From: a virus
Reading direction: 5' to 3' (one strand)
Virus record (IMG/VR): IMGVR_UViG_3300046787_000508
Span: 62,001 to 126,000 of that record
Length of the DNA stretch: 64,000 bases
Shown here: in pieces, positions 1,893-63,893 of the stretch
Numbering within the stretch: the first letter of the stretch is position 1
How the letters are laid out: each line of letters begins with the position of its first letter
The notes under the pieces: generated by a model
The model's input: the letters and a program-made list of their open reading frames with translations, nothing else
The model's database searches: none
Told to the model about the DNA's origin: nothing
Made by a program: the position numbers and the translations under genes

Positions 1893-1901
1893 TATAAATA
1901 G
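1893..1901 (-). promoter_or_regulatory. Late-type box CTATTTATA
   Basis: The minus strand reads CTATTTATA, ending 4 nt before the ATG of the edge-truncated virion gene. It matches a box found before most virion operons in the window, always in the same orientation relative to the gene. Confidence 0.55.
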
Positions 1902-1939
1902 AAACTCCTTAGTTTTCTATAAGATAAGAAAAAAACAAA

Positions 1940-3772
1940 TTAATATGTAGTCGAAGTGAGAGTTTTAATCCTAACTTTAATATCTGTGTTCGGAACCCTT
2001 ACTTGGAATATCTGATTTGACTTCATATATATGGTACTTTCAGCTTGTAGAATCTCTTTTGTTACATCATCTTTATATGATTGTGAAACTTGTGCTGAAG
2101 AGTAATCCCCACCGATTTTATTGTAAACTCTAATATCAACAACGTTAACAACACCAACCACATTACCAATTTGAGTTTTTAAATCCCCAACTAATAGTGG
2201 GTCTCCCATTTTTCTCTTATCGATTGAGAAAAAGGATGTTGCTTGTTGAACAACGGATTTGATGATATCTGTTGAATTTTCATTTTTATTTACAACTAAA
2301 TCAACTTCTAATCCTAAATCGATAACTTCACCACTTTGGATGTCTAAGTAATCGTTTAACATTCTGTATTTTGAAAGATAGTTTAAAACGTTATTTTTCA
2401 ACGTATTAGATACGGTATCAATTAGATTACCATTCTCATCATATGATAACAACTTAATTCTAACTTTGTTGTCTTCCTCCATTACACTTACCTTTGCCGG
2501 TGCACCGAATGTCGCTGGCATGGTTTCAATCATGGATTTATAATCATTTAACGTCACCGCTCTGTTTTGTGCCGCAAAGTTATATGCAATCATGTTTCTA
2601 ATCTCCTCAACTGTAGGTGCGTCTGAACCTCCAACTGCGGGTGTAATGTTAGTAACTCTTAATGATTGGTTTACTTGGTCATTTATTGACGTATTAGGAC
2701 CGTTTACAACATATTCGAAGGTATCCATCGAATTGATTACATTAACCCCTAAATTCGTGTCTTTACCACCACCAATACGATATTTTACAAATAAAGTTGA
2801 GTTGGTTTTTGGGATTGCACCTAATGAGGTATTATTAAGGAATGTAGAAAGATTAACTTTCATGTTTCCTGTCATATAATTGTCCAAGTTATCCATTGGG
2901 TCCACATTACCTGAACCAAAAGTTAGTGAATAATAGTTTTCAGGTGTGTATTCAGTGTAAAATTTATTTACGATACCCATATAATCACCTGATTTGAAAT
3001 TATCTTTATCAGATGCCTCAGTTGGGTCTTCAACAAATATCTTATCTTCAATAAGTGATTTTACTTCGTACCATCTATTATCGGTTCCCATGAATTCATC
3101 TGAAGTAGGATTTGCTCCGTAACCTCCACCATCTTTATGAATTACTGATGTAACACCTAATATGTTTCTTTCAGGTAAATAAATCTTTAAGAATGGTTTT
3201 TGGTCAGTAGATGTAATAACTCTTCTGTAAATTCTTGTTACACCATTTACCACCGCTTCTCTTTTAGTAATTGTATATGAAACCAATTTATTGTTACCAT
3301 CAAAATTAGGTATTTTCAATCTATTAGGTTCACCTTTACTATTAAAAGGACTTGAAAAATCAATATCTTCGACAGTTTCAAATATTTGTCCTCCACCTGA
3401 AACCTGCGCTCCTGATTTCAATATACCTTCATATCTCTCATCATCTTTATCACCCTTTACAGGTACATTAATTGAAAAATCACATAAAGCAATTGATGGT
3501 CTCGGGCCAGGTAGTTTAATACCGTAAGTTTTCGCAATATGAAATAATGATTGTCTTTGTTGTGCAAAGTCCAAAATCGTCTCTTGCCAAACTCTATCAA
3601 TATGATAATGTAAGTTATCCGCAATACCCGCGTTCATGTCCAATAACACCGAATAAATCGAAGCATCATTGAAGTTGGTTATTAGTTCAGGATAGTACTG
3701 TTTGGTTAAATCAACCAATTCTTCTCTAAGTCCCGCAAAATCTCTTGTTGCGTATGATATTTGTTTTGACAT
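1940..3772 (-). CDS. 6: Baseplate wedge protein, T4 gp6-like (baseplate J family)
   Basis: This 610-residue protein resembles T4 gp6 (660 residues), which forms the wedge ring of the baseplate and belongs to the baseplate J-like family. The N-terminus (YATRDFAGLREELVDLTKQY, then NDASIYSVLLDMNAGIADNL) is the usual entry of this family. The middle holds the long beta-rich domain, and the region around VEEIRNMIAYNFAAQNRAVT, with NDYKSMIETMPATFG after it, is the conserved core. The C-terminal third has the alternating helix and strand pattern of the family. The ATG lies one base after the stop of the gp25-like gene, so the two are co-translated as in other contractile-tail phages, where gp25 and gp6 are also neighbours. 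Expression probably starts from the box at 4236-4243. Confidence 0.88.
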   Translation of the reverse strand: MSKQISYATRDFAGLREELVDLTKQYYPELITNFNDASIYSVLLDMNAGIADNLHYHIDRVWQETILDFAQQRQSLFHIAKTYGIKLPGPRPSIALCDFSINVPVKGDKDDERYEGILKSGAQVSGGGQIFETVEDIDFSSPFNSKGEPNRLKIPNFDGNNKLVSYTITKREAVVNGVTRIYRRVITSTDQKPFLKIYLPERNILGVTSVIHKDGGGYGANPTSDEFMGTDNRWYEVKSLIEDKIFVEDPTEASDKDNFKSGDYMGIVNKFYTEYTPENYYSLTFGSGNVDPMDNLDNYMTGNMKVNLSTFLNNTSLGAIPKTNSTLFVKYRIGGGKDTNLGVNVINSMDTFEYVVNGPNTSINDQVNQSLRVTNITPAVGGSDAPTVEEIRNMIAYNFAAQNRAVTLNDYKSMIETMPATFGAPAKVSVMEEDNKVRIKLLSYDENGNLIDTVSNTLKNNVLNYLSKYRMLNDYLDIQSGEVIDLGLEVDLVVNKNENSTDIIKSVVQQATSFFSIDKRKMGDPLLVGDLKTQIGNVVGVVNVVDIRVYNKIGGDYSSAQVSQSYKDDVTKEILQAESTIYMKSNQIFQVRVPNTDIKVRIKTLTSTTY

Positions 3773-3773
3773 A

Positions 3774-4226
3774 TTACAAATTAATAATTATAAAATCTGG
3801 TGTGGTAAATGTACCGTTATTAACCGTATAATCAATTTTAACCTTTGCAGTGTACGGTTTGTTCGCTGCAGTTGATACTCTAAATAATCTCGCATCTTCA
3901 TCTTCACTCACGGATGTAATCATCTGCTCAGGGTCGTCTTCCGCAGACATTACCTGAATTGAATTAATATCAAGATTTGGTATGTATTTCTTTACACCTT
4001 CTCTTATTTCTTCTTCGATGTTATTATGTGTGATAATATCGTTTTGGTCGAAAATGTATTCGTATAATCGTGTTCCGAAATCAGGTAATAGGAATCTACT
4101 TCCTTTTCTTGTTAGGAGTAGATGTATTAAATTCGCTCTAACCTCCTTTTCGGGGGTTGCAGTTAATCTAACGTAATTACCAATTGCACTATCCCTAAAT
4201 GGGAAGTCTATACCGTATGTAGCCAT
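3774..4226 (-). CDS. 25: Baseplate wedge protein, gp25/GpW-like
   Basis: A 150-residue protein of the gp25 family, the wedge component that links baseplate to sheath and is conserved in all contractile tails. Family features are the N-terminal DFPFRDSAIGNYVRL, the segment EVRANLIHLLLTRKGSRFLLPDFGTRLYEYIFD, written here only by its ends EVRANLIHLL and PDFGTRLYEYIFD, and the following helix EEEIREGVKKYIPNL. Length is close to that of T4 gp25 (132 residues), with a short acidic extension after the core. It is followed after one base by gp6, the normal partner. A TATTTATA box lies 9 nt upstream, and the nrdA terminator separates it from the replication block. Confidence 0.9.
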   Translation of the reverse strand: MATYGIDFPFRDSAIGNYVRLTATPEKEVRANLIHLLLTRKGSRFLLPDFGTRLYEYIFDQNDIITHNNIEEEIREGVKKYIPNLDINSIQVMSAEDDPEQMITSVSEDEDARLFRVSTAANKPYTAKVKIDYTVNNGTFTTPDFIIINL

Positions 4227-4235
4227 AACAATAAA

Positions 4236-4243
4236 TATAAATA
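4236..4243 (-). promoter_or_regulatory. Late-type box TATTTATA upstream of gp25
   Basis: The minus strand reads TTATTTATA, 9 nt before the gp25 ATG and downstream of the nrdA terminator, so it could start a late transcript for gp25-gp6. It lacks the leading GA or C seen at the best copies, so it is a weaker example. Confidence 0.4.
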
Positions 4244-4260
4244 ATTGTAAAATGGTAATA

Positions 4261-14659: not shown

Positions 14660-14863
14660 TTAGTCTTGTAAAAGTTGTCTACCGTCTTCGGTAATGTATT
14701 TTTTATTTATTCTTTCAACGATTCCGTCTTTTGACCTGATTACGTAACATTCTCCGGTTACCATATCACACTCTTCTCTTTCCATTCCGTCGTTAGAAAC
14801 ACTCTTTACGGTTTTAGGTGAAAGGAATTGGTCCATTGTATTGTTTAGTCTATTATTTTCCAT
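14660..14863 (-). CDS. Small protein of unknown function
   Basis: A 67-residue protein that I do not recognise. It has two cysteines in EECDMVTGECYVI, a spacing that could hold a disulphide or metal, and a basic stretch RINKKYI. It is the first gene of a four-gene minus-strand operon that runs to the terminator at 12622, and the best-matching form of the box (GATATTTATA) lies 17 nt upstream of its ATG. Its reality is supported by tight packing with the next gene (4 bases) and a clean ATG. Confidence 0.6.
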   Translation of the reverse strand: MENNRLNNTMDQFLSPKTVKSVSNDGMEREECDMVTGECYVIRSKDGIVERINKKYITEDGRQLLQD

Positions 14864-14880: not shown

Positions 14881-14890
14881 TATAAATATC
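14881..14890 (-). promoter_or_regulatory. Late-type box GATATTTATA before the 14863 operon
   Basis: The minus strand reads GATATTTATA, 17 nt before the ATG at 14863. It is a full match to the extended motif and sits in the only gap between this operon and the giant gene upstream. Confidence 0.55.
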
Positions 14891-23900: not shown

Positions 23901-25726
23901 GGTTCAGGTCGACCTAAGAAAGTGTTAGTTTCCCACTTAGCACTGTTGTTCTCACTAATTTTTAAATCATAAGGTGGGAACCACATAACACGACCTCCGT
24001 TTGGGCCTCTTTCACAATATGGTAAATCGTTATAACTAAATCCAGGTAAGTTAGATGTTTTCCAAGCTAAGTTTTCAATAGAAAACATGTATTTTTTTGC
24101 ATAAAATCCGTCACCTTTACCTTTAACGATATTTGATTCGGGTCCAAAGTCTTTGTTTCCATTAGACATTGGCGCGATATTCAAGTTCCACGGTTTGGTT
24201 AAAACGCTACTACCGTACTTTCTAATAAGTCCAGTTCTTTTCATGGTGTCAGAATTGTTCATATAAGACCTATCCTTGGTCCAAACTCTACAATACTCAA
24301 TTCCACCTTCCTCTTTAGTAAACTTGTCAACATACTTAACTGCAGACCCTCTGGACATCATTGTATCACCTTCCTTAAAGATTCTACTTGTTTGGTCGAT
24401 AACATTCGCAACGTGTGAACGTGCTGCAGCTCCATTCGTTGGCATTGAATCAAGAATATCCTGAGTCGTGTCTAATATTGACCCATTTCTAAAGTTATAG
24501 TTAGTTGATAAACTTTCCGAAAATTGTGATTTCTCACTTGGGAACTCTTTGTTACCGACTCCTAATTTATTTTTTGATGAACGACTAATCCACGTTAATT
24601 TACCTCCAATTCCTCCACCTTCAGAAATATTTCGTTTTCTTCCAAATAAATCCGCCTGTATTGGGTCGAACATAACACTAAGATAGTAATTGCTTCTAAC
24701 TGGTCTATCATTAAAGTCATTCATTGCATATTTTACATCATCACTTCTATCGTCACCAATATATGCATATTTTGTTGGTGCCTCGACACCTAAAACGTTT
24801 TTAACACCTTGAGCTAAATTATCAATAAAATTAAATAATTTAGATGAATTTTGAGACCTTGCTGTTGTCGTGTAGTTTGGTCCGTATTTTGAATATGATA
24901 AATTATCAAATAACGCAATTTTTTGTCCCGAACCAAGATATTCAATCATTAAATCTGAAGGTTTCCTTGAAACTTTTGGCCTTCTATCAATACCAATTAA
25001 AGAACCCAATGCTCCCGTTACGTCTTGGTATATTTTACCTAACTCAGTTTTTGCCTCAGGTCTATAGTTTACCGGATTTCTTGGGTTAGATAAGTAATCG
25101 CCAGGTATTTCCGACCATGGAAATTCAACACCCACGACTGTTTGTACAAAATCAATTGCTTTACCCGGTAAAGTTTTTGCTACGGTTATTTTCGTATTAC
25201 CTTCAACAAGTGGTTCTCTACCTGTAATAATATTAATCGCTGTAGTTGTGTTTCCTTGTAATGCGTCTATTAATCTTACTCGACCAACAGTTGCTGCGTA
25301 TAAGTTTTGTTGTATTCTCGCTAATAATGGACCTTGTGGGTCTGTTTTAATATATGATGACGCAAATTTGAACAATTCAGATTCATTATCATAATTTGAT
25401 GTGGTTAATATACCAATTAAATTATGGTCTTGGTCTCTTTCAAAATATGGGTATAAATTTAAGTTTGCTCTTCTTGGTAATGTGTTGATACCATCTCTAA
25501 CCGAATATTGTAATGGTTTAAAAATGTTACCATTTTGTGTGTTAACCAAATATTGTGGTAAATTATTCTCTACAGTTCCAGGGTCAACGTTTGACATGTT
25601 ACTTAAAGATTGAACAGCATAATTTGAAGAACTACTAGTCTGAGGACCATTAGGAGATTGAAGAGTCTTACCCAAAATGTAATCTCTAAAGTTTTTTGTA
25701 GTATCGAAATCTAAGTAACTTGGCAT
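20969..25726 (-). CDS. Giant baseplate protein (1585 residues) with an inserted OmpA-like domain
   Basis: The protein begins with an unassigned region. Between about residues 540 and 690 it shows a structural segment seen in baseplate proteins of large T4-like phages (NGGRVMWFPPYDLKISE, FLGRPEPVYTYQNTER, then a beta domain ending in VDHPSVLNLLVREHFKG). A second part of the same kind follows near residue 1120-1200 (PPPICVLRVGDFYHSKIII and NPEGIGVQPMIATATLSI). Between them, residues about 735-1000 look like an OmpA C-terminal domain: SATLYFPNDYP, then DNYNLKLAYRRSYSI, which lines up with DxYNxxLxxRRA of OmpA, then a closing strand near ITFWCRETTFEVNY. OmpA domains bind peptidoglycan. A box CTATTTATC lies 15 nt before the ATG. 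The baseplate role is likely; the OmpA call is tentative. Confidence 0.7.
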   Translation of the reverse strand: MPSYLDFDTTKNFRDYILGKTLQSPNGPQTSSSSNYAVQSLSNMSNVDPGTVENNLPQYLVNTQNGNIFKPLQYSVRDGINTLPRRANLNLYPYFERDQDHNLIGILTTSNYDNESELFKFASSYIKTDPQGPLLARIQQNLYAATVGRVRLIDALQGNTTTAINIITGREPLVEGNTKITVAKTLPGKAIDFVQTVVGVEFPWSEIPGDYLSNPRNPVNYRPEAKTELGKIYQDVTGALGSLIGIDRRPKVSRKPSDLMIEYLGSGQKIALFDNLSYSKYGPNYTTTARSQNSSKLFNFIDNLAQGVKNVLGVEAPTKYAYIGDDRSDDVKYAMNDFNDRPVRSNYYLSVMFDPIQADLFGRKRNISEGGGIGGKLTWISRSSKNKLGVGNKEFPSEKSQFSESLSTNYNFRNGSILDTTQDILDSMPTNGAAARSHVANVIDQTSRIFKEGDTMMSRGSAVKYVDKFTKEEGGIEYCRVWTKDRSYMNNSDTMKRTGLIRKYGSSVLTKPWNLNIAPMSNGNKDFGPESNIVKGKGDGFYAKKYMFSIENLAWKTSNLPGFSYNDLPYCERGPNGGRVMWFPPYDLKISENNSAKWETNTFLGRPEPVYTYQNTERTGQISFKIVVDHPSVLNLLVREHFKGMSDEESENYINAFFAGCQDVDFYDLIRKYVTLSQTDITTIQAFLNGNNDPQTITQFTSVTDPIENPGTPDNGGAVPNTDPNKTDPKSFSATLYFPNDYPTKGSSKGDLYSDTTYQKEFDHYMLLKEGEYKKELNQGLDNLLVNGTWGPKSKKDYKILFGKESPTKPNISEVPALKTEVEKQIDDAFNELSTTYPKVNEKYEELKKGLTDKTVKDIKIKLSSTTSAVADDNYNLKLAYRRSYSIITDLITKISKDGTTTALDKVKWKNVVTTKDKSAKESAIEISLKDFGYTDNEGKFTIEYVSNIGEQLTNGSIGSHKNVDCSDNKLVTTSNDLKRTAPITFWCRETTFEVNYSVKPPDVPATTPPPSITEVPKTRLVPYEEKPKAKDRKPSIDPLKNIVMKVLSECHYFKILEEDSPVQFNSLKEKLRYFHPGFHSTTPEGLNSRLTFLQQCIRPGDTIPIKGISDESDINARNTTFGPPPICVLRVGDFYHSKIIIRDVNFSFDEGTWDLNPEGIGVQPMIATATLSISFIGGQGMEKPVERLQNALSSNFFANSEVYDPRATATEDRSKFTKEFLQTLNLSKPSEVKPNAVDALTQTNKVTEGKYIGTLNDKTLDYTDLVKQVFKDTENYTKTYITGYNNIVKQYGDTLSSMFLSPTYRTIRNYTVQTGAGTETIQLFGDYVKNKELSVMANDFKQIFISKIESESMTEMFKFDRDMTEPVVKKSEEILKPFIIKKVSEMIDTFSSNKSIVDIEKSRNDLILTLDKVNFLVETGHDGKVDKDQYIGAELSGFTYDKLYSKYDNNIKFIRDKQSKFYEDLDDSYIFESTSTMTTEDMTNFLSILLKDSIQEIKGLYTKDETIFTKRILADIEKRLNKFMVTPKEKDLKVKKYPIQKDSNKVSFNITNETFTFNDTQKEQLVKVNTTGKVKSTDTLNYVR

Positions 25727-25741: not shown

Positions 25742-25750
25742 GATAAATAG
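25742..25750 (-). promoter_or_regulatory. Late-type box CTATTTATC before the giant baseplate operon
   Basis: The minus strand reads CTATTTATC, 15 nt before the ATG at 25726, in the 41-base gap after the tape measure gene. It could start the transcript for the two giant genes and gp53. Confidence 0.5.
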
Positions 25751-25767: not shown

Positions 25768-27654
25768 CTAATTGGCATTAAGGTATGAACCCTTAATTTG
25801 ACCTTGGAAGTACGCATCGTTGAACATTTCTCTCATAATACCATCGGTTAATGTGTTATTTGATGTTATTTTTAATTCCACTTCTTTTTTCTCAATTGGT
25901 TTTTCAGTAACTTTTTGTGTTTTATCTTCGGTTTTCTTAATTTCCTCTTTAGTGTTAATTGGGGTTGTTTTACCTGTAACAGTACCTTTTTGATTTGATT
26001 CTTTTGTACTTGAAAATACATCTGTCGCTATCGTTCTAATAACATTGGCGGTGTCCTCAGTCCCCTTAGCTACTTTGTTAGCAATTTCTTTTGATTCGAT
26101 TGCCATTTTCATTGGGTCAAATCCCAATTGTTTTACTAAACTATCACCTAATTTACCTGCCTCAACTCTTGCCTTGGCGGCGATAAATGATACATCACGA
26201 TTAATGTTCTCAATTGCACTAACTTGTTTTGTTGCAATTTCCTCTGCTGACATTTTCTTAAACGCCTCTCTTTGGTTTAATAGAATATTTTTTTGATTGT
26301 CACTCATGGATTCTAATGCCACGGTACTACCTCCCAATTGGTCTTGTAAACTTTTTGGTACTTCAATTACCATTTTACCGTCTTTCATTTGAGCCATGTT
26401 AGTAAGGAATTCTCTATCATCATCCTCCATCACTAACCCTGTTGACATTAATTCACTAGCCGCAGACATTCTTTGAGCCGAATTAACCGCTAAATCAGAT
26501 AATTGTTTAAAATCTTGTCCGGTAGCACTTGCAATTGCTCTTACTTGTCTTAAATTTGCTCCTGTTACTTCAAATCGACCTGTTTGTTGGTTGAACGTTG
26601 CTAAACCTTTAACCGTTCCGGCTAATGCATCTTGTAAACCATTCATATCGTTGGTTGTCATATACATTAATTTAAGAGGGTCGTTCATTGCACCAAATGC
26701 TCCTCCAACTGCCGATAATTGTGCCGCCAATTCCATTGCCCCTTCGGGTTCAAATGCTTTATCGGCTAAAGCGGTGACCATCGAGAAGTCCATTTTTAAT
26801 GATTGTGCCTTCTGAGCCATTTTGGTTAAACCTTCAATTCCATTTTTGAAACCATATTGATTTAACAATCCTATATTTTGACCAACCTTACTGATTGTTT
26901 CTTTTGAATTTAAACCTAACTCTAGTGAACTTTTACTTGCATCTTGGATATAGTCCATTGTATCTTTAACGCCCATGGAAACTCTTTGAAAATCGTTTGC
27001 CATTTGTGCGGCACCTGACATTCCCCCCTCAACAAACTTACTTGATAGTTCCATATCACGAATAGTATCGGCATTGACTAATCTAAATCTACCTGAATCG
27101 GCAACTAAACTTGTCATTGTTTGTGATAACTCAGAAAAAGATATTCCTAATCTTTGAGCGTCAGGATATGCTTCGGTAATTTCTTCTCTAAATGCTTTAG
27201 ATAATTCTCCGGTCATCATTGTTCCCGAATTAATATCTTGTAATAAAGCGTTTTGTTGTTTGTAGTTGTCAACTAATGCGGTACCGGCTTGTGAAACCGC
27301 ATCTTTTGCTATGTCACCTAACGATTTTAATTTATTATTCGCATCGAATAACATATTAATCGCAGTTTCAATTGTTGCATTCTCACTTGTTGAACCGTAA
27401 TCTTTTCCTGATTGACTTTTTAACCCCTCTCTTACCGCTTGTAAAATACCCTTTGGTGCACTTGACGTTGGTCCACTTGTTGTGGTTGTTGGGTTAGATG
27501 ATGTACTTGGAGCAACACTATTATCGGTTGTTCTATAAAAGTTATACGCAGCCGACATATCCGATACACTTGCGTTCGGATTTGTCTTTTTATATTCGTT
27601 AAAAAATTCGGTTTGCCTTCCCGATTTGGCGAGTTGGGATAATTTATCGTTCAT
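25768..27654 (-). CDS. Tape measure protein
   Basis: A 628-residue, strongly helical protein in the position of the tail length ruler: after sheath, tube and chaperones and before the baseplate genes. The N-terminus is a short helical region with a Ser/Thr/Pro linker (residues about 48-70). Then come long amphipathic helices (LFDANNKLKSLGDIAKDAVSQ, given here as LFDANNKLKSLGDIAKDA) and repeats of the tail-ruler type (MAQKAQSLKMDFSMVTALAD, ELAAQLSAVGGAFGAMNDP, ASATGQDFKQLSDLA). A Lys/Glu/Thr-rich C-terminal part follows. Length is close to that of T4 gp29 (590 residues), so the tail is probably of similar length, near 100 nm. No lysozyme or peptidase domain is visible. A CTATTTATA box sits 4 nt before the ATG. 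Confidence 0.8.
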   Translation of the reverse strand: MNDKLSQLAKSGRQTEFFNEYKKTNPNASVSDMSAAYNFYRTTDNSVAPSTSSNPTTTTSGPTSSAPKGILQAVREGLKSQSGKDYGSTSENATIETAINMLFDANNKLKSLGDIAKDAVSQAGTALVDNYKQQNALLQDINSGTMMTGELSKAFREEITEAYPDAQRLGISFSELSQTMTSLVADSGRFRLVNADTIRDMELSSKFVEGGMSGAAQMANDFQRVSMGVKDTMDYIQDASKSSLELGLNSKETISKVGQNIGLLNQYGFKNGIEGLTKMAQKAQSLKMDFSMVTALADKAFEPEGAMELAAQLSAVGGAFGAMNDPLKLMYMTTNDMNGLQDALAGTVKGLATFNQQTGRFEVTGANLRQVRAIASATGQDFKQLSDLAVNSAQRMSAASELMSTGLVMEDDDREFLTNMAQMKDGKMVIEVPKSLQDQLGGSTVALESMSDNQKNILLNQREAFKKMSAEEIATKQVSAIENINRDVSFIAAKARVEAGKLGDSLVKQLGFDPMKMAIESKEIANKVAKGTEDTANVIRTIATDVFSSTKESNQKGTVTGKTTPINTKEEIKKTEDKTQKVTEKPIEKKEVELKITSNNTLTDGIMREMFNDAYFQGQIKGSYLNAN

Positions 27655-27658: not shown

Positions 27659-27667
27659 TATAAATAG
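27659..27667 (-). promoter_or_regulatory. Late-type box CTATTTATA before the tape measure gene
   Basis: The minus strand reads CTATTTATA followed by AGGT and then the ATG of the tape measure gene. The 4-nt spacing is one of the shortest in the window and would leave almost no untranslated leader if this is a promoter. Confidence 0.5.
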
Positions 27668-29200: not shown

Positions 29201-29208
29201 TATAAATA
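29201..29208 (-). promoter_or_regulatory. Late-type box TATTTATA before the tube gene
   Basis: The minus strand reads GATATATTTATAAGAG, with the core TATTTATA 37 nt before the tube ATG. The leader downstream is A-rich (AACAAAAAAAACTAAC). It is the best candidate for starting tube mRNA after the sheath terminator. Confidence 0.5.
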
Positions 29209-29424
29209 TATCTCAATTGGAAATAATTTTATTTTACTCAATTACTTGACTTTATCAATTTTATTTCGTAGTTTTTTACAGGCTCCAGCAATTAAGTTCC
29301 AGTATAAATAGATTATTATATAATAAATACTAGAATATAATAATATAACTAGTATTTCTAGTTCCAGTAATGCTGGGTAAATTAAAAATATAACAATAAT
29401 ATTATTATGGTTCCTTGTGGAACT

Positions 29425-29453
29425 AAAAAAGGGTACCATTTCTGATACCCTTT
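29425..29453 (-). terminator. Terminator after the tail sheath gene
   Basis: AAAGGGTA (29428-29435) pairs with TACCCTTT (29446-29453), and the minus strand continues with TTTTTTAGTT. It lies 22 bases past the sheath stop. Confidence 0.8.
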
Positions 29454-32337: not shown

Positions 32338-32347
32338 AATAAATATC
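32338..32347 (-). promoter_or_regulatory. Late-type box GATATTTATT before the sheath gene
   Basis: The minus strand reads GATATTTATTGAATAAG, 36 nt before the sheath ATG. The spacing and A-rich leader resemble those of the tube gene, the other major tail protein. Confidence 0.5.
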
Positions 32348-32410: not shown

Positions 32411-32427
32411 TTTATTTATCTTTAGTT

Positions 32428-34332: not shown

Positions 34333-34338
34333 ATCTCT

Positions 34339-34374
34339 TATAAATAGTTTAATTATTCAATCTAATTATTTATA
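34339..34374. promoter_or_regulatory. Divergent pair of late-type boxes
   Basis: CTATTTATA faces the minus-strand neck gene (core 34339-34346, 6 nt from its ATG). TATTTATA faces the plus-strand helicase gene (34367-34374, 7 nt from its ATG). Each box reads toward its own gene. Confidence 0.5.
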
Positions 34375-34381
34375 TTTTAAT

Positions 34382-37184: not shown

Positions 37185-37194
37185 GATATTTATC
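37185..37194 (+). promoter_or_regulatory. Late-type box GATATTTATC
   Basis: GATATTTATC lies 4 nt before the ATG at 37199 on the plus strand. The divergent gene on the other side of this gap has no such box. Confidence 0.5.
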
Positions 37195-37198: not shown

Positions 37199-38311
37199 AT
37201 GAGCGCAACAATTATAACCCAAGAACAAAAAGATAAACTATACACTCAGGTTTTTCACCTATTAGGTATGCCAGTTCGTGGTATAGAACTTACCGAAGAA
37301 CAAATGGACACATTTTTAGAATTGTCCTTATCGGAATATGAACAATACGTTAGTGATTGGTTAATCGAATCTCAATGGTCAGCATTGGCGGGATTAGATG
37401 TCGATACTCAATCTTTAACCCGTGCGTTTACTACAAGAAGTTTAGATTATGAAACACAATATTCGTATTCGTATTCTAAAATTGTAGGATTACAAGCCGG
37501 TGGAGATAATGAAATGAAAAAAGATTTTATTGAGTTATCAGGTAATACACAAACTTATGTAATTCCTGCAGGACGTGAAATAAATGAACTTTTATGGTTC
37601 ACACGTGCTGAGTTATCCGATTCCATTGTTGACCCATTCTTAGGTGGATTTGGTGGTCTTGGTGGTGTTGGTTTTGGTGGTGTTGGTGGATTTGCTCAAG
37701 TAGGTTCTTCAGGTTCATACTTTATGTTACCAGCATTTGACCTTTTATTAAGGATGCAAGATAGAAACATTAAAAACCGTTTAATTGGTGGGGAATTAAC
37801 ATATAGAATAACTGCAGGTCCTAACGGAACAAAACTTGTACATCTTTATAATGTACCGGGTGGTAGATTTGATTTTGGTTCATTAAAAACCTATAGAGTT
37901 TGGTATTGGTATTATCCAACAACCGATAGAGATACTTGTCTTGATAAAAACAAAGACGTAATTAAATTACCTTCAGATGTTGAAACAGAGGAATTGACAT
38001 GGGATAGTTTAAATAAACCGGCGCAAAACTGGGTTAGAAAATATCTTATTGCTTATTCTAAAGAAGGATTGGGACGTATTTGGGGTAAATTCTCAGGTGA
38101 GTTACAAGTTCCTGATAGTTCAGTTAAATTAGATTACACGTCATTATTAACTGAGGGTAAAGATGAGAAGTTAAAACTAATCGAAGAATTAACACAACGA
38201 TTAGAGAGACTCCGCCCTGAAAAAATTCTTGAAAGAAAAGGTGCAGAAGCGGAGAATCTAAACAAATCGTTGAAGTATAGACCTATGGTCTCTCCATTTA
38301 ATGTGATTTAA
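37199..38311 (+). CDS. Neck/head-completion protein, gp13-like (tentative)
   Basis: The ATG at 37199 directly follows a late-type box and is preferred to a TTG at 37175 that would place the box inside the coding region. The 370-residue product has an N-terminal helical domain (LYTQVFHLLGMPVRGIELTE, then MDTFLELSLSEYEQYVSDW), a pattern found in head-tail connector proteins. A Gly-rich loop follows (GGFGGLGGVGFGGVGGFAQ), then a beta domain rich in aromatics (YRVWYWYYPTTDRDT), and it ends with a helical C-terminus. I infer a gp13-like neck role from helix pattern and late expression; it is not a firm identification. The 3' end overlaps the DNA polymerase stop by 4 nt (convergent). Confidence 0.65.
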   Translation: MSATIITQEQKDKLYTQVFHLLGMPVRGIELTEEQMDTFLELSLSEYEQYVSDWLIESQWSALAGLDVDTQSLTRAFTTRSLDYETQYSYSYSKIVGLQAGGDNEMKKDFIELSGNTQTYVIPAGREINELLWFTRAELSDSIVDPFLGGFGGLGGVGFGGVGGFAQVGSSGSYFMLPAFDLLLRMQDRNIKNRLIGGELTYRITAGPNGTKLVHLYNVPGGRFDFGSLKTYRVWYWYYPTTDRDTCLDKNKDVIKLPSDVETEELTWDSLNKPAQNWVRKYLIAYSKEGLGRIWGKFSGELQVPDSSVKLDYTSLLTEGKDEKLKLIEELTQRLERLRPEKILERKGAEAENLNKSLKYRPMVSPFNVI

Positions 38312-42783: not shown

Positions 42784-44865
42784 TTAATCATCCCACCAGA
42801 TGTAATCGTTTATTAATTGTTCACCATCATAATCATCCATTGTAACTGATGTTATTGTTTCATCACTAACTAAGAAAAACTCTTTTGTTCCTTGACCTTG
42901 GAATATAACCACAAATCTATCTTTTGCTGAATATATGTCACTCCAATTATTGTATTGTGTTGTGTAGGTGTTTAATATTGTTCCTGTAAAATCATATAAA
43001 TTTATTGTATAAACACCACCATCTGATTCGTTATATACTAACATAAACTTATCTTTCCCAACTGACATATTGTAATTATAATATTCTGGAATAGTAAACT
43101 CTGAACTAATTCCACTATTAGTTAAAACTCTACAGTTTAATCCACCTTCAGACCATAATACCATATTACTTGGGGTTAAGAATGTAGATGTGAAATAATC
43201 ATTTGGTGTACTAATTTGATTGTAATGTGTTGTTGATGTAAACCCAGTACTTCCACTATAAACATAATATGCATGATTAGTAGTAGACGAATCAGTATAA
43301 CGTAAATAAAATACATCGCCGTTACTAGTCATATTGTAAGCATAATTTGAATATAATATCGGGTCTAAACTATCAAGAATTGTTCCGTCGTTACCAATTA
43401 AATTGAAGAACATATCTATTCCGCTGTTTGTACTGTAAGATGTTACAAGTCTATCTCCCATTGAGTAATAATTGGTGTCGGTTATACCTGAAACTGGTTC
43501 AGTTAAATCTGCAATTGTTACACCACTTATTGTAATTGTTATCACACCTAATGTGTTACCTGTTGTTTCGCAGAATGATTTATAAGTGTTACCAAGATTA
43601 CCCCACGTTGCCACCGTTCTATTTGCACCATTTGTCACAGAATAAGTTGTAAATCCGGTTTGGTTATTCAACATATAAACATAGTCGAAATAATCACATT
43701 GCGGTCCCAAATTACTGTATCCAACTTCGTTATATAATGAAATTACAACACTACCATCGACACTGCTATCAGGCCAATAACTTTCGTCACCATTTATGTT
43801 AATAGCATCATAATTAGAACCTCTAACGTGAGTTGTTTCAGTTAAAGTTCCTGTTGTACCATTGTAATGGATTATTTTATAATCGACAGCGGTATTGTCC
43901 CAATTGTAATAAACCGCACACATTCTATCTGTTCCAAGAAAACGAGCATCTACACTAGCGTATGTGTCTCCCGTAAGTGATATTGTTTCTAAAATATCAC
44001 CGTCGGTGTTATAAATTTCTAAACTTGTGTATTGATTGGTATCTTGGTCTCTAGTTTCAACGGCAATGAAATCGATAAATGGTGATATCATATGGTCAAC
44101 ATTTATACAGTCGCTCCAAGTTTTGAATGGAATAACTGTACCATCAGGTTTCATAATATATGACGCACCTGCACCATTACACGCCCATTGTCCAATTTCA
44201 TATTTTTTTACAATAATAGAACCGTCACCCATTACGGCATCATAATCCCATTCAATATCAATATTATGTGTTTCAGGATTCCAAGTGTAAGTATATAAAT
44301 CTATTCCGTTGAAATATTTTAATATACCATTATCAGCATCTTCATATGTAATCCATTTACCATCTAAACTATTAAGGTCATAACTATTTGTTGTTCCACT
44401 ATATTGACCAACAATGGCGTTCGATGCATCTGTGAATATTACGAGATTTTCGTTGCCATTGTCTCTACCTGCAAAATGATAACCATATCCTGAATCGGTT
44501 AACGGATAAAGGTTGTAGTTGTACCAATAAGTTGAGTCAATTCCTAAATCAATAACCTCAGCGGTGAAATCGTTAAAGTTTAACGTTGCTGCACCATAGT
44601 TACTCGAAGTTGTCATTCTATCTGAATGAACGAATAATTGTGTTTCAACTACCGGTTCGTCAATCGTTAACGTATACGTGTAATCATACTCGGCCAAATA
44701 GATGTTGTAAACACCATATGGATGTGATGTAATGTTATTAAAAGGGATTGTTTTAGTTCCAAGGTTTACCGTGGTACCTGATGTTGTCCCTGTATATGGT
44801 ATAAACGTTACTGTTGCCGTCTTACCACTTAAGTTCTCACTTGTTATTCTTGCTCCTATTGCCAT
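42784..44865 (-). CDS. Large beta-rich adhesin-like fibre protein
   Basis: A 693-residue protein, Tyr/Asp/Thr-rich and almost entirely beta. The first 100 residues form a sandwich-like domain (ARITSENLSGKTATVTFIPY; YTYTLTIDEPVVETQLF). The rest is a succession of 40-50-residue units with a shared rhythm, for example TDGDILETISLTGDTYASVD, NDGTILDSLDPILYSNYAYN and DFTGTILNTYTTQYNNWSD. This suggests a beta-propeller of many blades. Propellers are frequent in phage adhesins and bind sugars. The final residues (TSVTMDDYDGEQLINDYIWW) are acidic. It is the second gene of the fibre operon and has its own GTATTTATA box 19 nt upstream. Confidence 0.65.
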   Translation of the reverse strand: MAIGARITSENLSGKTATVTFIPYTGTTSGTTVNLGTKTIPFNNITSHPYGVYNIYLAEYDYTYTLTIDEPVVETQLFVHSDRMTTSSNYGAATLNFNDFTAEVIDLGIDSTYWYNYNLYPLTDSGYGYHFAGRDNGNENLVIFTDASNAIVGQYSGTTNSYDLNSLDGKWITYEDADNGILKYFNGIDLYTYTWNPETHNIDIEWDYDAVMGDGSIIVKKYEIGQWACNGAGASYIMKPDGTVIPFKTWSDCINVDHMISPFIDFIAVETRDQDTNQYTSLEIYNTDGDILETISLTGDTYASVDARFLGTDRMCAVYYNWDNTAVDYKIIHYNGTTGTLTETTHVRGSNYDAININGDESYWPDSSVDGSVVISLYNEVGYSNLGPQCDYFDYVYMLNNQTGFTTYSVTNGANRTVATWGNLGNTYKSFCETTGNTLGVITITISGVTIADLTEPVSGITDTNYYSMGDRLVTSYSTNSGIDMFFNLIGNDGTILDSLDPILYSNYAYNMTSNGDVFYLRYTDSSTTNHAYYVYSGSTGFTSTTHYNQISTPNDYFTSTFLTPSNMVLWSEGGLNCRVLTNSGISSEFTIPEYYNYNMSVGKDKFMLVYNESDGGVYTINLYDFTGTILNTYTTQYNNWSDIYSAKDRFVVIFQGQGTKEFFLVSDETITSVTMDDYDGEQLINDYIWWDD

Positions 44866-44884: not shown

Positions 44885-44892
44885 TATAAATA
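44885..44892 (-). promoter_or_regulatory. Late-type box TATTTATA before the propeller-like fibre gene
   Basis: The minus strand reads GTATTTATAATAG, 19 nt before the ATG at 44865. The box lacks the leading GA or CT but matches the core. Confidence 0.42.
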
Positions 44893-44933: not shown

Positions 44934-49799
<4,866 letters not shown>

Positions 49800-49804
49800 G
49801 TTTA

Positions 49805-49814
49805 TATAAATATC
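49805..49814 (-). promoter_or_regulatory. Late-type box GATATTTATA before the adhesin operon
   Basis: The minus strand reads GATATTTATATAAACATG, with 5 nt between box and ATG. It forms a divergent pair with the box at 49828-49837. Confidence 0.55.
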
Positions 49815-49827
49815 TTTCCCTTCGTTT

Positions 49828-49837
49828 GATATTTATA
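49828..49837 (+). promoter_or_regulatory. Late-type box GATATTTATA before the 49853 operon
   Basis: GATATTTATAATAAAAGTG lies 15 nt before the ATG at 49853 on the plus strand. In this 53-base divergent gap both strands carry the identical ten-base motif, each pointing to its own gene. Confidence 0.58.
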
Positions 49838-49852
49838 ATAAAAGTGATTTAG

Positions 49853-50638
49853 ATGAATAATTTTATTAAACAGGTAATTGAGGAGAAATTTGCTTCAAAA
49901 GCACAACAACGTTTCTTCTATGCAAAGGCAAACGAAAAGGGTGCCAGCAAGAAAGAAAAAGAAAAATGGGGTAAGATGGCGAAGGAGTTTTCAGATAAAA
50001 CAAATTTTAAAAAAATCCCTAATAAAGTTGATGAAACCGACCCAAATCAAGAAGAATTACAATTTGATGAGATTGTTGATGCCGATGGAAACATCATGAC
50101 AGGGTCAAAACCAACTAATGCCAACACTAAAGGTATTACTTCAAAATCTACAAGTGATGACGTTGTAAGGTCAGCAATGGGTCAAATGGGTACATTTGGT
50201 ATTGCAGGCGGAACGAGAAAAGGTGCAACCACAATGAGATATTGGGGAGAATCTGATATGAGTAAAGCATTAGGTTATGAAGACACGTTGGGTAGTGATG
50301 AGGATATCGAAGACGCTAAAAGTCATTTTGAAGATGAATTAGGTTTGCCTGATGATGAAGCAAAAGAAAGAATGAACAAAATGGGATACGATGAGAATTT
50401 ACCTGACGATAAGGTTAGGTTAATTGAGACCCCAAAGAAATTCATAGAAGAGTATATTGAAAGTTTATTGGCTAAGAAAACAAAATCAGATGATTTAGTG
50501 AAAGGTAGTCAAAACGAAATTGATGAGAAAAAAATTAACCCTATATTAATGAGACAATTAAAATCTTTAAAGAGTTCTTTAAAAGATAATGATTTATCGG
50601 TAAAGGATATTATTGATTATTTAAACGACAATGAATAA
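49853..50638 (+). CDS. Virion or assembly protein, unknown, with SKAQQRFFYA motif
   Basis: A 261-residue, very acidic and lysine-rich protein. The N-terminal FASKAQQRFFYAKANEKG with KKEKEKWGKMAKEFSDKT after it is a motif found in small phage and bacterial proteins (a short helix pair). The middle is Gly/Thr-rich and low in complexity (MGQMGTFGIAGGTRKGATTM). The rest is helical (DAKSHFEDELGLPDDEAKE; IEEYIESLLAKKTKSDD). I infer a structural or scaffold role from the late box and position; no family assigned. It overlaps the next gene by 8 nt. Confidence 0.65.
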   Translation: MNNFIKQVIEEKFASKAQQRFFYAKANEKGASKKEKEKWGKMAKEFSDKTNFKKIPNKVDETDPNQEELQFDEIVDADGNIMTGSKPTNANTKGITSKSTSDDVVRSAMGQMGTFGIAGGTRKGATTMRYWGESDMSKALGYEDTLGSDEDIEDAKSHFEDELGLPDDEAKERMNKMGYDENLPDDKVRLIETPKKFIEEYIESLLAKKTKSDDLVKGSQNEIDEKKINPILMRQLKSLKSSLKDNDLSVKDIIDYLNDNE

Positions 50639-58359: not shown

Positions 58360-59148
58360 ATGAAAAAAATAACAATACTTTTACCAGTACATAAATTAGA
58401 CGGTGATGACATCATTATGTTGAAAAATGCAGTTGACTCTGTTGAGGATTTTCATAACGATGTTAAAGTTTCAATCATTGCACCAAAAAATCTAAAATCA
58501 CAATTAATCGAATTAGGTTTAAGTGAAAAATTAGAAATAAACATTCTTGAAAATACAACAAAACAAACTGATTTCGTAAGTCAGATTAATTTAGGTATTG
58601 AAAACTGTGATACTGAATGGTTCTCAATCTTAGAGATGGACGATGAGTATAATAAAGTTTGGTTAACTGCTGTTAGTGAATACGCTCACAACTATAAAGA
58701 CGTTGATGTTTTCTTACCGATAGTAAAAGATATCAATGTTGAAGGTTCATTCTTAAGTTTCACCAACGAATCGGTTTGGGCTTACGGGTTCACCGAAACT
58801 CAAGGTTATTTAGATAACGAAGTACTATTAGAATACCAAAACTACCAAACTAGTGGTGGTCTTTATAAGACTGAGGTAATCAAGGAAAATGGTTCATTTA
58901 AAGATAACATGAAGTTAACTTTTAGTTACGAACTATTATTAAGATTAACCCACAATGGTGTTAAAATCATGGGGGTACCGAAAATCGGATACCAACACGT
59001 AAACTTCAGAGAGAATTCGTTATTTTGGTCATATAAAAATGACGATAAAACAAAATTAACAGAGGAAGAAGTTAAATTTTGGTTAGAGACGGCCAAAAAA
59101 GAATTTTTCTTCAAAAATAAACGTGAGATAATTTATACAGAAGCTTAA
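58360..59148 (+). CDS. Glycosyltransferase, GT2-like (GT-A fold)
   Basis: A 262-residue enzyme. The start KKITILLPVHKLDGDDIIML is the common entry of family 2 transferases. SQINLGIENCDTEWFSILEM leads into DDEYNKVW near residue 92, the DxD-type metal/donor motif (here EMDDE), and YQTSGGLYKTEVI plus YELLLRLTHNGVKIMGVP give the acceptor-side helices. It lacks membrane segments, so it acts in the cytoplasm. It forms a unit with the 57291 transferase and overlaps the sigma gene by 1 nt (TAATG). Confidence 0.8.
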   Translation: MKKITILLPVHKLDGDDIIMLKNAVDSVEDFHNDVKVSIIAPKNLKSQLIELGLSEKLEINILENTTKQTDFVSQINLGIENCDTEWFSILEMDDEYNKVWLTAVSEYAHNYKDVDVFLPIVKDINVEGSFLSFTNESVWAYGFTETQGYLDNEVLLEYQNYQTSGGLYKTEVIKENGSFKDNMKLTFSYELLLRLTHNGVKIMGVPKIGYQHVNFRENSLFWSYKNDDKTKLTEEEVKFWLETAKKEFFFKNKREIIYTEA

Positions 59149-59846
59149 TGCCAAGACCCAGAACCCAAAAAATCTATTTTGGGGAGGAGCAAGAAAAGGC
59201 GGTAGTCAGTTACCTTGAAAGTACTGATGATGCGGAAAGAAACAAGATATTCAACGAATATTTAAGAGACCCTCTCACAATTATGGTTGAAAGTATCATT
59301 AGAAGATACAAACTATACAGGAAAGACTTTGAATTCATAGATTTACATACGGATACAATGTCTTTCCTAATTACAAAAATAAGTAAATTTGACCATACGA
59401 AGAACCATAAGGCTTATTCGTATTTTGGTACTATTTGTAAAAACTACCTTATGGGTGCAATACAAAAAGACCAAAAAGATATGAATAGAACAGTGTCTTA
59501 TGACGATATATCTTCGGATATTGAGGAGAGACCTGATTTAACATACGTCATTGACAACACTCCATTAGACTATAAAGATGTTATTGTTAAGTTAACAACA
59601 ACTTTAGAGGAATTTATGGAAAGAGAGGATTTGAACGAAAACGAACAAAAGTTAGGTTATGCCTTACTTGAAATATTCGGTAATTTCGACAAAATCTTTG
59701 AAGTCGGAGAAGGTAACAAGTTCAATAAGAACTTGATTCTCCTTTCATTAAGGGAAATGACATCATTATCAACTAAAGAAATCAGAGTGTCAATTAAGAA
59801 ATTCAAAAAAATGTACGATGGTATACTTTTTAATTTCCTAAATTAA
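59148..59846 (+). CDS. 55: Late RNA polymerase sigma factor, T4 gp55-like
   Basis: A 232-residue protein. NEYLRDPLTIMVESIIRRYK followed by LHTDTMSFLITKISKFDHTK and AYSYFGTICKNYLMGAIQKD is a sigma region 2-type helix bundle: promoter melting and core binding, with aromatic residues in the melting helix. This is the pattern of T4 gp55 (185 residues), which directs host RNA polymerase to late promoters together with the gp33 and gp45 proteins. It has no region 4 comparable to that of host sigma factors. The C-terminal part (SLREMTSLSTKEIRVSIKKF) is helical and may contact DNA or a coactivator. This product is the obvious reader of the TATTTATA boxes, one of which lies 9 nt after its stop. Confidence 0.8.
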   Translation: MPRPRTQKIYFGEEQEKAVVSYLESTDDAERNKIFNEYLRDPLTIMVESIIRRYKLYRKDFEFIDLHTDTMSFLITKISKFDHTKNHKAYSYFGTICKNYLMGAIQKDQKDMNRTVSYDDISSDIEERPDLTYVIDNTPLDYKDVIVKLTTTLEEFMEREDLNENEQKLGYALLEIFGNFDKIFEVGEGNKFNKNLILLSLREMTSLSTKEIRVSIKKFKKMYDGILFNFLN

Positions 59847-59854: not shown

Positions 59855-59863
59855 CTATTTATA
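59855..59863 (+). promoter_or_regulatory. Late-type box CTATTTATA before the 59867 virion operon
   Basis: CTATTTATATAGATG: the box ends 3 nt before the ATG at 59867, directly after the sigma gene. It is one of the best matches with very short spacing. Confidence 0.55.
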
Positions 59864-59866
59864 TAG

Positions 59867-60250
59867 ATGAGACAGAGAAAAAATTTAATATCATTAGAAA
59901 TGGATTCGGCATTGGCTTTAATGCAGGAAATCTATAATGATATTGTAGAACAAAAGAACACAGCCTCTTTAATTACAAAGAAAATGTTAACTTTTATGAA
60001 GGATGCTGAGGATATGAGTGTTATTGGTCCCGTAATTAAGGAACAACAAAAAATCCTTAATGATTGTACTGAAAAGAAAATATCACTTGTTAAGTTACAA
60101 GGGGTATTATTAAAACAATCGGGAACAACTGGTGGAAGTACGGATAAAGGATTTGGTAAATTAACATTATCGGATGATGATAGGGATTTACTTGAGAAAT
60201 TGGTTAATGACCAAGATAACGATACAAAAACAGGTAACTACACTATATAA
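59867..60250 (+). CDS. Small coiled-coil protein, first gene of the 59867 operon
   Basis: A 127-residue, helical protein: LEMDSALALMQEIYNDIVEQ, then LITKKMLTFMKDAEDMS and KEQQKILNDCTEKKISLVKL, then a Gly/Ser linker and an acidic tail (LSDDDRDLLEKLVNDQ). The shape and length recall small terminase subunits such as T4 gp16 (164 residues), but I see no DNA-binding motif and the large terminase is not in the window. This remains only a possibility. A second Met (residue 12) could be the true start if the upstream box is a promoter. Its stop overlaps the next ATG (TAATG). Confidence 0.6.
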   Translation: MRQRKNLISLEMDSALALMQEIYNDIVEQKNTASLITKKMLTFMKDAEDMSVIGPVIKEQQKILNDCTEKKISLVKLQGVLLKQSGTTGGSTDKGFGKLTLSDDDRDLLEKLVNDQDNDTKTGNYTI

Positions 60251-62145: not shown

Positions 62146-62146
62146 T

Positions 62147-62344: not shown

Positions 62345-62345
62345 T

Positions 62346-63881
62346 ATGAAAATAATTGACATTGCGGTTTGTGTTAATAACATAGACCCTAAAGGTATCG
62401 GTAGAGTTAGATATAGACCTTATGGATTGTATCTAAGTGAAATTGAAGGTGGGATAAAGTACGAAGAGTGGGATGAAAATGACCCACTTATTGCGTTACC
62501 ATTCCTACCTGCACATATCAATATTATTCCGAAAATACAATCGTCAATCAAATTAATAAAATATGACACCGACAAGGATACTCAAAATGTTGAATATGTA
62601 ACCGGTCCCTTTAGTTCTCCACACGATTTTGGAAGTGAGTCTTTTACCTCACAAAACAAATACACCACGTATGGTGGGGTTATCGTTTCAGATAGAAAAG
62701 ATGTTCGTACTAAGGAAGGTAAATTAATATCCCCATTAACCGAGGGTTCGTTTGCTAAGTTAAATGACATTAGTATCAACGGTGATTACGGTTCCGATGT
62801 AATTTTTACCGAAAACGGTGTTCAAATTAGAGGAGGGGCATTAATAAACAAAGATGCGGGAAATAACTCTAAATTCAAACAAAGTTTAATGGATTTCCCA
62901 CAAGTTGCAAAAAAGATGGGTAGATTCGGATTAAAGAAATTCCCACATACAATGCAATTGGTTTCAGAAGATGTTGTCATATCAAAACAAGTTGTTTCAA
63001 AATTAAAATATCTTGTTGAATTTGAAGTCGATAGTTTCACGTCCCCAACAAAATTAGATTTGTTTGTTTATAAAATAATTGATGAATACGGTTCTAAATT
63101 TAGCACCGTTAATTTTAATCAAAACACCGTAATTGATAGAACCGATACTAAAGTTGTTAAATTGATAAACGTAGACAATACGTTAACAACCCCAACAGTT
63201 AGTAAAGATATTGTCGGCACAACTAATACCGAAAAAATACAAAGTGTATATGTTAACATGAGAGAATTGTTACATATTATTGACATGAGAGGACTTGGAG
63301 ATTTAGACCCATCATTTGAACCTACAGATTGTCACCCATTTTACTATAGACCCACCCCAACGTTCCTTACAACTATACCATCAACACCTCAAGGTATTGA
63401 AAACAAAACTAAAATTGTACAAAAGATACAAGTTAGAAATAGATTGGGAGATAATGGATTGGTTTATTCTAAAACAAGTCTTTATGCACCATTTATCGAT
63501 GAAAAAAAGAAGGAAATTAAAATTAAACACGTAAAAGATGCGGGGGAACAATCGTTCTCATACTTAAGTTCAGATAAGGTGTACCTACTTTCAACCTCAC
63601 CTAACATTGGTGTGAACGTTGAATCAATTAATTTTAATGAACTAAGCGAATACGAATTAACTCAAGAAGATTACGTAAAATCTATTGACCCTAAGACATA
63701 TGCGTTAGTTAGGGGCGAAAATCTATATAATGTGTTAGTTGCATTTAAAAATATTATAGACAGTCACGTCCATAATATCAACGAACCTTTGGAAAAAGGA
63801 GACCCTAATTGGTTAAAATTAGACGAATTAATATCAACTTTACGAAATGACCTTTTAAATGATTCAATTAGAATAAACTAA
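62346..63881 (+). CDS. Baseplate spike/hub protein, gp5-like N-terminal OB domain
   Basis: A 511-residue protein. The N-terminal segment KIIDIAVCVNNIDPKGIGRV then RYRPYGLYLSEIEGG is the entry strand of the gp5/VgrG-type OB domain, which sits on the hub at the tip of the tail tube. The middle is beta-rich (VNGV-type hairpins, KLNDISINGDYGSDVIFTEN). The C-terminal part has LSSDKVYLLSTSPNIGVN and, near the end, YALVRGENLYNVLVAFKNII then DSHVHN. This ending is common in baseplate proteins of large T4-like phages. No lysozyme domain like that of T4 gp5 is present, so cell-wall penetration must rely on another protein. The next gene follows after a GATATTTATT box. Confidence 0.7.
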   Translation: MKIIDIAVCVNNIDPKGIGRVRYRPYGLYLSEIEGGIKYEEWDENDPLIALPFLPAHINIIPKIQSSIKLIKYDTDKDTQNVEYVTGPFSSPHDFGSESFTSQNKYTTYGGVIVSDRKDVRTKEGKLISPLTEGSFAKLNDISINGDYGSDVIFTENGVQIRGGALINKDAGNNSKFKQSLMDFPQVAKKMGRFGLKKFPHTMQLVSEDVVISKQVVSKLKYLVEFEVDSFTSPTKLDLFVYKIIDEYGSKFSTVNFNQNTVIDRTDTKVVKLINVDNTLTTPTVSKDIVGTTNTEKIQSVYVNMRELLHIIDMRGLGDLDPSFEPTDCHPFYYRPTPTFLTTIPSTPQGIENKTKIVQKIQVRNRLGDNGLVYSKTSLYAPFIDEKKKEIKIKHVKDAGEQSFSYLSSDKVYLLSTSPNIGVNVESINFNELSEYELTQEDYVKSIDPKTYALVRGENLYNVLVAFKNIIDSHVHNINEPLEKGDPNWLKLDELISTLRNDLLNDSIRIN

Positions 63882-63883
63882 TT

Positions 63884-63893
63884 GATATTTATT
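63884..63893 (+). promoter_or_regulatory. Late-type box GATATTTATT before the 63905 gene
   Basis: GATATTTATTAAATAAAAAAG lies 11 nt before the ATG at 63905 on the plus strand; the core is TATTTATT at 63886-63893. Confidence 0.45.

What the first reader, a model, noticed from the sequence alone, without database searches (positions are those of the whole stretch)
1893..63893. Late-promoter-like box TATTTATA, inverted relative to the T4 late promoter, before most virion operons
Seen: the core TATTTAT[ATC], usually with GA or C in front, lies 3 to 37 nt before the start of the genes at 1888, 4226, 14863, 25726, 27654, 29163, 32301, 34332, 44865 and 49799 (minus) and 32428, 34382, 37199, 49853, 59867 and 63905 (plus), always reading toward the gene. 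In the divergent gaps at 34333-34381 and 49800-49852 each strand carries its own copy. The genes for nrdA, nrdB, helicase, exonuclease, UvsX, gp32, DNA polymerase, the nuclease-like protein and the glycosyltransferases lack it. Known: T4 late promoters use TATAAATA on the sense strand, read by gp55. Here the sense strand carries its reverse complement. Inference: a gp55-like sigma factor (59148-59846) reads a flipped or differently specified late box.
Basis: partly seen in the sequence, partly recalled or inferred. Interest (0 to 1): 0.78.

Follow-up and report, generated by a model that had tools for sequence, protein, structure and literature searches.

The report
Variant late promoter of far-T4 phages
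A large T4-related phage, probably of a Bacteroidota host, and several of its relatives mark the starts of their late (virion) operons with the box TATTTATA instead of the textbook T4 late promoter TATAAATA, probably because they carry a different late sigma factor.

Summary
On the whole 203-kb contig, TATTTATA lies on the sense strand within 60 nt upstream of 35 of 175 called genes (shuffles: mean 3.6, maximum 10). TATAAATA is near background (8 versus 4.2). De novo motif search finds naTATTTATa first. The same box leads virion genes of Flavobacterium phage immuto and Microcystis phage Mel-JY01. In metagenomic relatives it is present in 15/15, 17/17 and 9/10 distinct upstream regions of three box-led genes, and almost absent from the genes between them. 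T4, Syn9 and Ochrobactrum phage OC score for (T)ATAAATA in the same test; Rhodothermus phage RM378 scores for TTATTTAAA. The box has no -33/-35 partner, leads operons, can sit just after a terminator, and differs from the host-type promoters of immuto's early genes. The best reading is a T4-type late promoter with two central base pairs changed (AA to TT), read by the sigma factor at 59148-59846. 'Flipped' is not supported. Box type follows sigma lineage better than host phylum, with RM378 unexplained. Many boxes end 3-5 nt before ATG, so leaderless late mRNAs are predicted. Start sites and sigma binding are untested.

The parts
59148..59846 (+). gp55-like sigma factor gene (232 aa): sigma region 2 plus an extra C-terminal domain of about 90 aa; no box of its own
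   Evidence: PHROG late sigma factor E 2e-4; Pfam Sigma70_r2 18.2 bits, below the 24-bit cut-off; profile vs PDB: SigA E 0.0016, T4 gp55 7d7c_F E 0.0087; Foldseek top hits almost all sigma factors
1893..1900 (-). late box TATTTATA, 4 nt before ATG at 1888
4230..4243 (-). two overlapping boxes (TATTTATA, TATTTATT); the near one 3 nt before ATG of the gp25-like gene at 4226; terminator upstream
14881..14888 (-). late box TATTTATA, 17 nt before ATG at 14863
25742..25749 (-). late box TATTTATC, 15 nt before ATG at 25726
27659..27666 (-). late box TATTTATA, 4 nt before ATG at 27654
29201..29208 (-). late box TATTTATA, 37 nt before the tail tube gene (29163)
   Evidence: tube also boxed in immuto
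32338..32345 (-). late box TATTTATT, 36 nt before the tail sheath gene (32301)
   Evidence: sheath also boxed in immuto
32413..32420 (+). late box TATTTATC, 7 nt before a 52-codon ORF at 32428
34339..34346 (-). late box TATTTATA, 6 nt before ATG at 34332
34367..34374 (+). late box TATTTATA, 7 nt before the SNF2/UvsW-type helicase start at 34382 (divergent gap, opposite strand)
37187..37194 (+). late box TATTTATC, 4 nt before ATG at 37199 (homologue of immuto head completion protein)
44885..44892 (-). late box TATTTATA, 19 nt before ATG at 44865
49805..49812 (-). late box TATTTATA, 5 nt before the 1621-aa protein gene at 49799
49830..49837 (+). late box TATTTATA, 15 nt before ATG at 49853; conserved in 9 of 10 distinct relatives
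59856..59863 (+). late box TATTTATA, 3 nt before ATG at 59867; conserved in 15 of 15 distinct relatives at 3-4 nt
63886..63893 (+). late box TATTTATT, 11 nt before ATG at 63905; conserved in 17 of 17 distinct relatives

Best explanation
The box is the single recognition element of a T4-type late promoter with consensus [GA/C]TATTTATA on the non-template strand and no -33/-35 element. It probably works as follows: the phage sigma factor at 59148-59846 replaces the host sigma on the host RNA polymerase and melts the box at the -10 position, and transcription starts a few nucleotides downstream. Some boxes end 3-5 nt before ATG, so part of the late mRNAs should be leaderless or nearly so, which an SD-free host such as a Bacteroidota can translate. 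Shown here: the box, its strand, position, conservation and association with late operons in several phages. Inferred: promoter function, the sigma that reads it, start sites, leaderless mRNAs and the host.
For: Strand-specific enrichment on the contig and in immuto; de novo motif naTATTTATa, LLR 100 versus 29 in shuffles. Phylogenetic footprints in 15/15, 17/17 and 9/10 distinct upstream regions, with 0-2 in every intervening gene. In immuto, TATTTATA is before 16 of 65 late-region genes versus 6 of 131 others (p 7e-5). Portal, TerL, sheath and tube are boxed in both phages. Boxed genes lead operons: gap of at least 20 nt in 48/53 versus 56/121. Terminator stems end 3-12 nt before the box in several cases, so a transcript must start between terminator and ATG, where the box is the only conserved element. 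Immuto early genes carry a different promoter, aGTTGcc-N~20-TATATTTAG. The method finds TATAAATA in T4 and ATAAATA in Syn9 and OC. Each of four box-bearing phages searched has one sigma of this family. Mel-JY01 is a cyanophage with Shine-Dalgarno sites yet has this sigma and this box, while Syn9, also a cyanophage but with the short gp55, has ATAAATA.
Against: No transcript data. Similarity of the sigma to T4 gp55 is weak (E 0.0087). RM378 has a related box (TTATTTAAA) but no detectable sigma of this family. LR756508 has a weak sigma match but no box in the two stretches examined. No T4 sliding clamp gp45 found by Pfam PF02916. Gene-by-gene box sharing with immuto is not significant over all orthologues (p 0.38). 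With T4 geometry (box -13 to -6), boxes 3-4 nt before ATG would start inside the start codon, so start-site spacing must be shorter here.
Confidence: 0.72

Rival explanations
1. The boxes are host-type vegetative promoters (Bacteroidota sigma-A, TTTG at -33 and TAHHTTTG at -7) read by the unmodified host holoenzyme.
For: The core ATATTTA resembles TAnnTTTG; immuto early promoters (TATATTTAG) share ATATTTA with the late box.
Against: No TTG or other conserved element near -33 in the aligned sites of either phage; the box lacks the TTTG end, and T at -2 and A at -1 are not fixed. Immuto has a separate class that does have TTG at -33 and lies in the early regions. The box also occurs in Mel-JY01, whose host is a cyanobacterium.
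Confidence: 0.13
2. The box is an RNA-level element in late 5' leaders (translation enhancer, stability or processing site), with promoters elsewhere upstream.
For: Same-strand position close to ATG; AU-rich elements can act on RNA; the spacing clusters at 3-5 nt before ATG.
Against: Spacing ranges from 3 to over 35 nt, differs between phages and is longer where SD sites exist. Internal operon genes lack it. Terminator stems end 3-12 nt before some boxes, leaving little room for another promoter. The T4 late promoter scores the same way in the same test.
Confidence: 0.1
3. The T4 box is literally inverted and read by a sigma in a flipped mode.
For: TATTTATA is the exact reverse complement of TATAAATA.
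Against: The same string arises by two central substitutions; RM378 TTATTTAAA is not a reverse complement of the T4 box; sigma region 2 reads single-stranded non-template DNA with fixed polarity.
Confidence: 0.03
4. The pattern is a composition artefact of AT-rich intergenic DNA.
For: Whole-window counts are not above chance.
Against: Upstream counts are about ten times the dinucleotide shuffle mean, the reverse complement is near background, and boxes are conserved in diverged relatives.
Confidence: 0.01

Closest known systems
T4 late promoter and gp55/gp33/gp45 (PMC2988020, PMC7892883)
   Same: A single 8-bp AT box at about -10, no -35 element, AT-rich downstream, in front of virion genes; phage-coded diverged sigma-70-family factor
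   Different: TATTTATA instead of TATAAATA; sigma has an extra C-terminal domain of about 90 aa; gp45 not detected by Pfam PF02916; gp33 not tested; many boxes 3-5 nt from ATG
Late promoters of Syn9 and Ochrobactrum phage OC (ATAAATA type)
   Same: Same anatomy and gene class
   Different: A-run core and short gp55 without the C-terminal domain
Aeromonas phage Aeh1 variant late box (PMC2988020)
   Same: Precedent for lineage-specific change of a late box
   Different: Aeh1 changes the first two positions (a/gC for TA); here positions 4-5 change
Bacteroidota sigma-A promoter, TAHHTTTG at -12 to -5 (PMC6847099, PMC9723704)
   Same: T-rich core; short distance to the start site (4-5 nt in F. johnsoniae)
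   Different: No TTTG end, no -33 element; found in immuto as a separate class before early genes
Box of Rhodothermus phage RM378, TTATTTAAA
   Same: TATTTA core before tube, sheath, portal and the terminase operon
   Different: Last two bases AA not TA; no sigma of this family found

Membership tests
T4-type late promoter | Single 8-bp AT box upstream of virion and other late genes, strand-specific | tested here: met
T4-type late promoter | No conserved -35 element | tested here: met
   aligned sites of both phages
T4-type late promoter | Consensus TATAAATA | tested here: not met
   TATTTATA; TATAAATA near background
T4-type late promoter | Transcription start about one helical turn downstream of the box | not testable with these tools
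   needs 5'-end mapping
T4-type late promoter | Sliding clamp gp45 as activator | tested here: inconclusive
   PF02916 absent from contig; contig may be incomplete and clamp diverged
T4-type late promoter | Co-activator gp33 | not tested
   -
gp55 late sigma family | Sigma region 2 related to T4 gp55 | tested here: met
   colinear profile match to 7d7c_F over profile positions 16-139, E 0.0087; PHROG 'late sigma transcription factor' E 2e-4; Foldseek gp55 prob 0.95 but E 0.37; weak in all
gp55 late sigma family | Short protein that lacks a C-terminal DNA-binding domain | tested here: not met
   232 aa with a conserved C-terminal helical domain absent from T4, Syn9 and OC gp55; no PDB relative by sequence
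gp55 late sigma family | C-terminal clamp-binding epitope | tested here: inconclusive
   hydrophobic C-terminus in near relatives, binding not testable
Bacteroidota sigma-A promoter | TAHHTTTG at -7 | tested here: not met
   separate class in immuto
Bacteroidota sigma-A promoter | -33 element (TTTG) | tested here: not met
   no enrichment upstream of the box

The most novel reading that the evidence does not exclude
Far-T4 phages fall into two late-transcription lineages: a short gp55 reading (T)ATAAATA, and a longer sigma with an extra C-terminal domain reading TATTTATA independently of host phylum. In the second, phages of SD-free hosts place late boxes so close to the start codon that much of late mRNA is leaderless.
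Probability: 0.4. Interest if true: 0.72.

Novelty: new variant of a known kind. Interest (0 to 1): 0.6.

Why it matters
Annotation of T4-like phages searches for TATAAATA, so late operons of this lineage are missed. The pairing of two sigma lineages with two boxes that differ at two base pairs is a natural experiment on how a minimal sigma factor reads its -10 element. The sigma positions that separate the groups (A-[YF]-S-Y versus P-x-[AS]-Y in region 2.3/2.4) can be tested directly. Predicted leaderless late mRNAs would be unusual where leaderless messages are only about 5% in a related host (PMC9723704).

Tried and rejected
Whole-window motif counts: uninformative. Gene-by-gene box concordance with immuto over all reciprocal best hits: not significant (p 0.38), because operon structures differ; class-level tests were used instead. 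Host-type promoter TTG-N17-23-TAnnTTTG upstream of unboxed genes of the contig: 7 sense versus 3 antisense (shuffle 0.9), too few to define the early promoters. Sliding clamp by PF02916: none. C-terminal domain versus PDB by sequence: no meaningful match. LR756508 as a further relative: no box of either type in the two stretches examined. Papers: no report of TATTTATA as a phage late promoter in the held library; subscription journals and preprints are not covered.
Full report
What was checked. All sixteen listed sites exist on the stated strands. Raw counts over the window do not exceed chance (16 TATTTATA versus 12.7 +/- 3.5), so I tested position and strand. The window is 62001-126000 of a 202,894-base viral contig. 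On the whole contig (175 genes called by a script) TATTTATA occurs within 60 nt upstream on the sense strand of 35 genes. Dinucleotide shuffles give 3.6 on average and 10 at most. The reverse complement TATAAATA occurs before 8 (shuffle 4.2), and TATTTATA is the most strand-biased 8-mer of all. A de novo EM search gives naTATTTATa as best motif with about 61 sites (LLR 100 versus 29 for shuffled sequences).

Relatives. The nearest isolate by the sigma protein is Flavobacterium phage immuto (30% identity). Immuto has TATTTATA before 22 of 197 genes (shuffle 2.7; TATAAATA 6 versus 4.0); TATTTATA or a one-base variant precedes its portal, terminase, sheath, tube and tape measure genes. In its late regions 16 of 65 genes have it, elsewhere 6 of 131 (p 7e-5). 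Thirty-six IMG/VR loci encode the sigma at 45-94% identity. In them the box is present in 15 of 15 distinct upstream regions of the gene at 59867, 17 of 17 at 63905 and 9 of 10 at 49853. The sixteen other genes of that stretch, including the sigma gene, have it in at most 2. Flanking DNA has diverged while box and spacing are kept.

Controls. The same scan gives TATAAATA for T4 and ATAAATA for Syn9 and for Ochrobactrum phage OC (12 genes versus 1.5). It gives TATTTAT for Microcystis phage Mel-JY01 (13 versus 3.4; ATAAATA 4 versus 5.4), where it precedes terminase, portal-position and tube genes. RM378 gives TTATTTAAA (TATTTAA 26 of 95 genes versus 1.9), before tube, sheath, portal and the terminase operon.

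Why a promoter. Boxed genes lead operons (gap of at least 20 nt in 48 of 53 versus 56 of 121 unboxed; in immuto 28 of 32 versus 56 of 164). In several cases an intrinsic terminator stem ends 3 to 12 nt before the box, so the next transcript must start between it and ATG, where the box is the only conserved element. Aligned sites show no -33/-35 element, as in T4 late promoters (PMC2988020). Immuto early genes use a separate class, aGTTGcc-N~20-TTCnTATATTTAGgta, close to the Bacteroidota TTTG/TAHHTTTG promoter (PMC6847099). The box is therefore not simply the host promoter. Non-virion genes that carry it are ones expected late from T4 knowledge: the UvsW-type helicase and a RuvC-like resolvase.

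Which factor. The protein at 59148-59846 matches late sigma PHROG 234 (E 2e-4). Its family profile matches SigA (E 0.0016) and T4 gp55 (E 0.0087, colinear). Its model matches sigma factors almost exclusively, with gp55 at probability 0.95 but E 0.37 (mean pLDDT 76). Unlike T4, Syn9 and OC gp55 it has a conserved C-terminal domain, shared by immuto and Mel-JY01. Box type follows this sigma lineage rather than host: Mel-JY01 is a cyanophage with Shine-Dalgarno sites (33 of 87 versus 21 in shuffles) but has the long sigma and TATTTATA, whereas Syn9 has the short gp55 and ATAAATA. RM378 is unexplained, since no sigma of this family was found there. That the sigma reads the box is inference.

Flipped or changed. 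TATAAATA and TATTTATA differ at positions 4 and 5. Since the frame is palindromic, a two-base change and an inversion give the same string. RM378's TTATTTAAA is not a reverse complement of the T4 box, so the simpler reading is a changed core. A change at other positions (first two) is already known for Aeh1 (PMC2988020).

Spacing. On this contig 17 of 59 boxes end 3-5 nt before ATG and none properly ends at 0-2 (one apparent -1 is probably a misplaced start). At 59867 the 3-4 nt spacing is kept across relatives whose N-terminal protein sequence is also conserved. In F. johnsoniae the start site lies 4-5 nt after the -7 box (PMC6847099). If this applies here, many late mRNAs begin at or next to ATG. 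The contig and immuto show no Shine-Dalgarno enrichment, consistent with a Bacteroidota host, where leaderless mRNAs are only about 5.5% in F. psychrophilum (PMC9723704). Start sites were not measured.

Novelty. I found no report of this box in the held library. I file it as a new variant of the T4-type late promoter, not a member of the strict TATAAATA class.

Noticed in passing
L002/L003 (NC_055915), about 22-76 kb: Immuto early genes share a long promoter-leader block aaaGTTGcc-N~20-TTCnTATATTTAGgtatcaataattaaaaca, close to the host-type TTTG/TAHHTTTG promoter.
   Followed up: partly
L054, L062 (RM378): Rhodothermus phage RM378 has TATTTAA, mostly TTATTTAAA, before 26 of 95 genes, including tube, sheath, portal and the terminase operon, but no detectable sigma of the window's family.
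   Followed up: partly
L050 16764-17534: Microcystis phage Mel-JY01 carries a sigma and late box of the same kind as Bacteroidota-type phages while using Shine-Dalgarno sites.
   Followed up: partly
window 59568-59843: C-terminal domain of the sigma with the conserved pattern KFNKxxxLxxIRExTxxxTKxIRxxxKKxKxxY, no PDB relative by sequence; absent from T4, Syn9 and OC gp55.
   Followed up: partly
window 44934-49799: 1621-aa protein with many Pro-Thr (PTPTP) linkers between domains, probably a fibre or adhesin, read from a box 5 nt before its ATG.
   Followed up: no
window 29303-29310 (-) and 29322-29329 (-): Two further box copies 139-158 nt before the tail tube gene, inside the span of a short ORF at 29242-29439; possible second promoter.
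   Followed up: no
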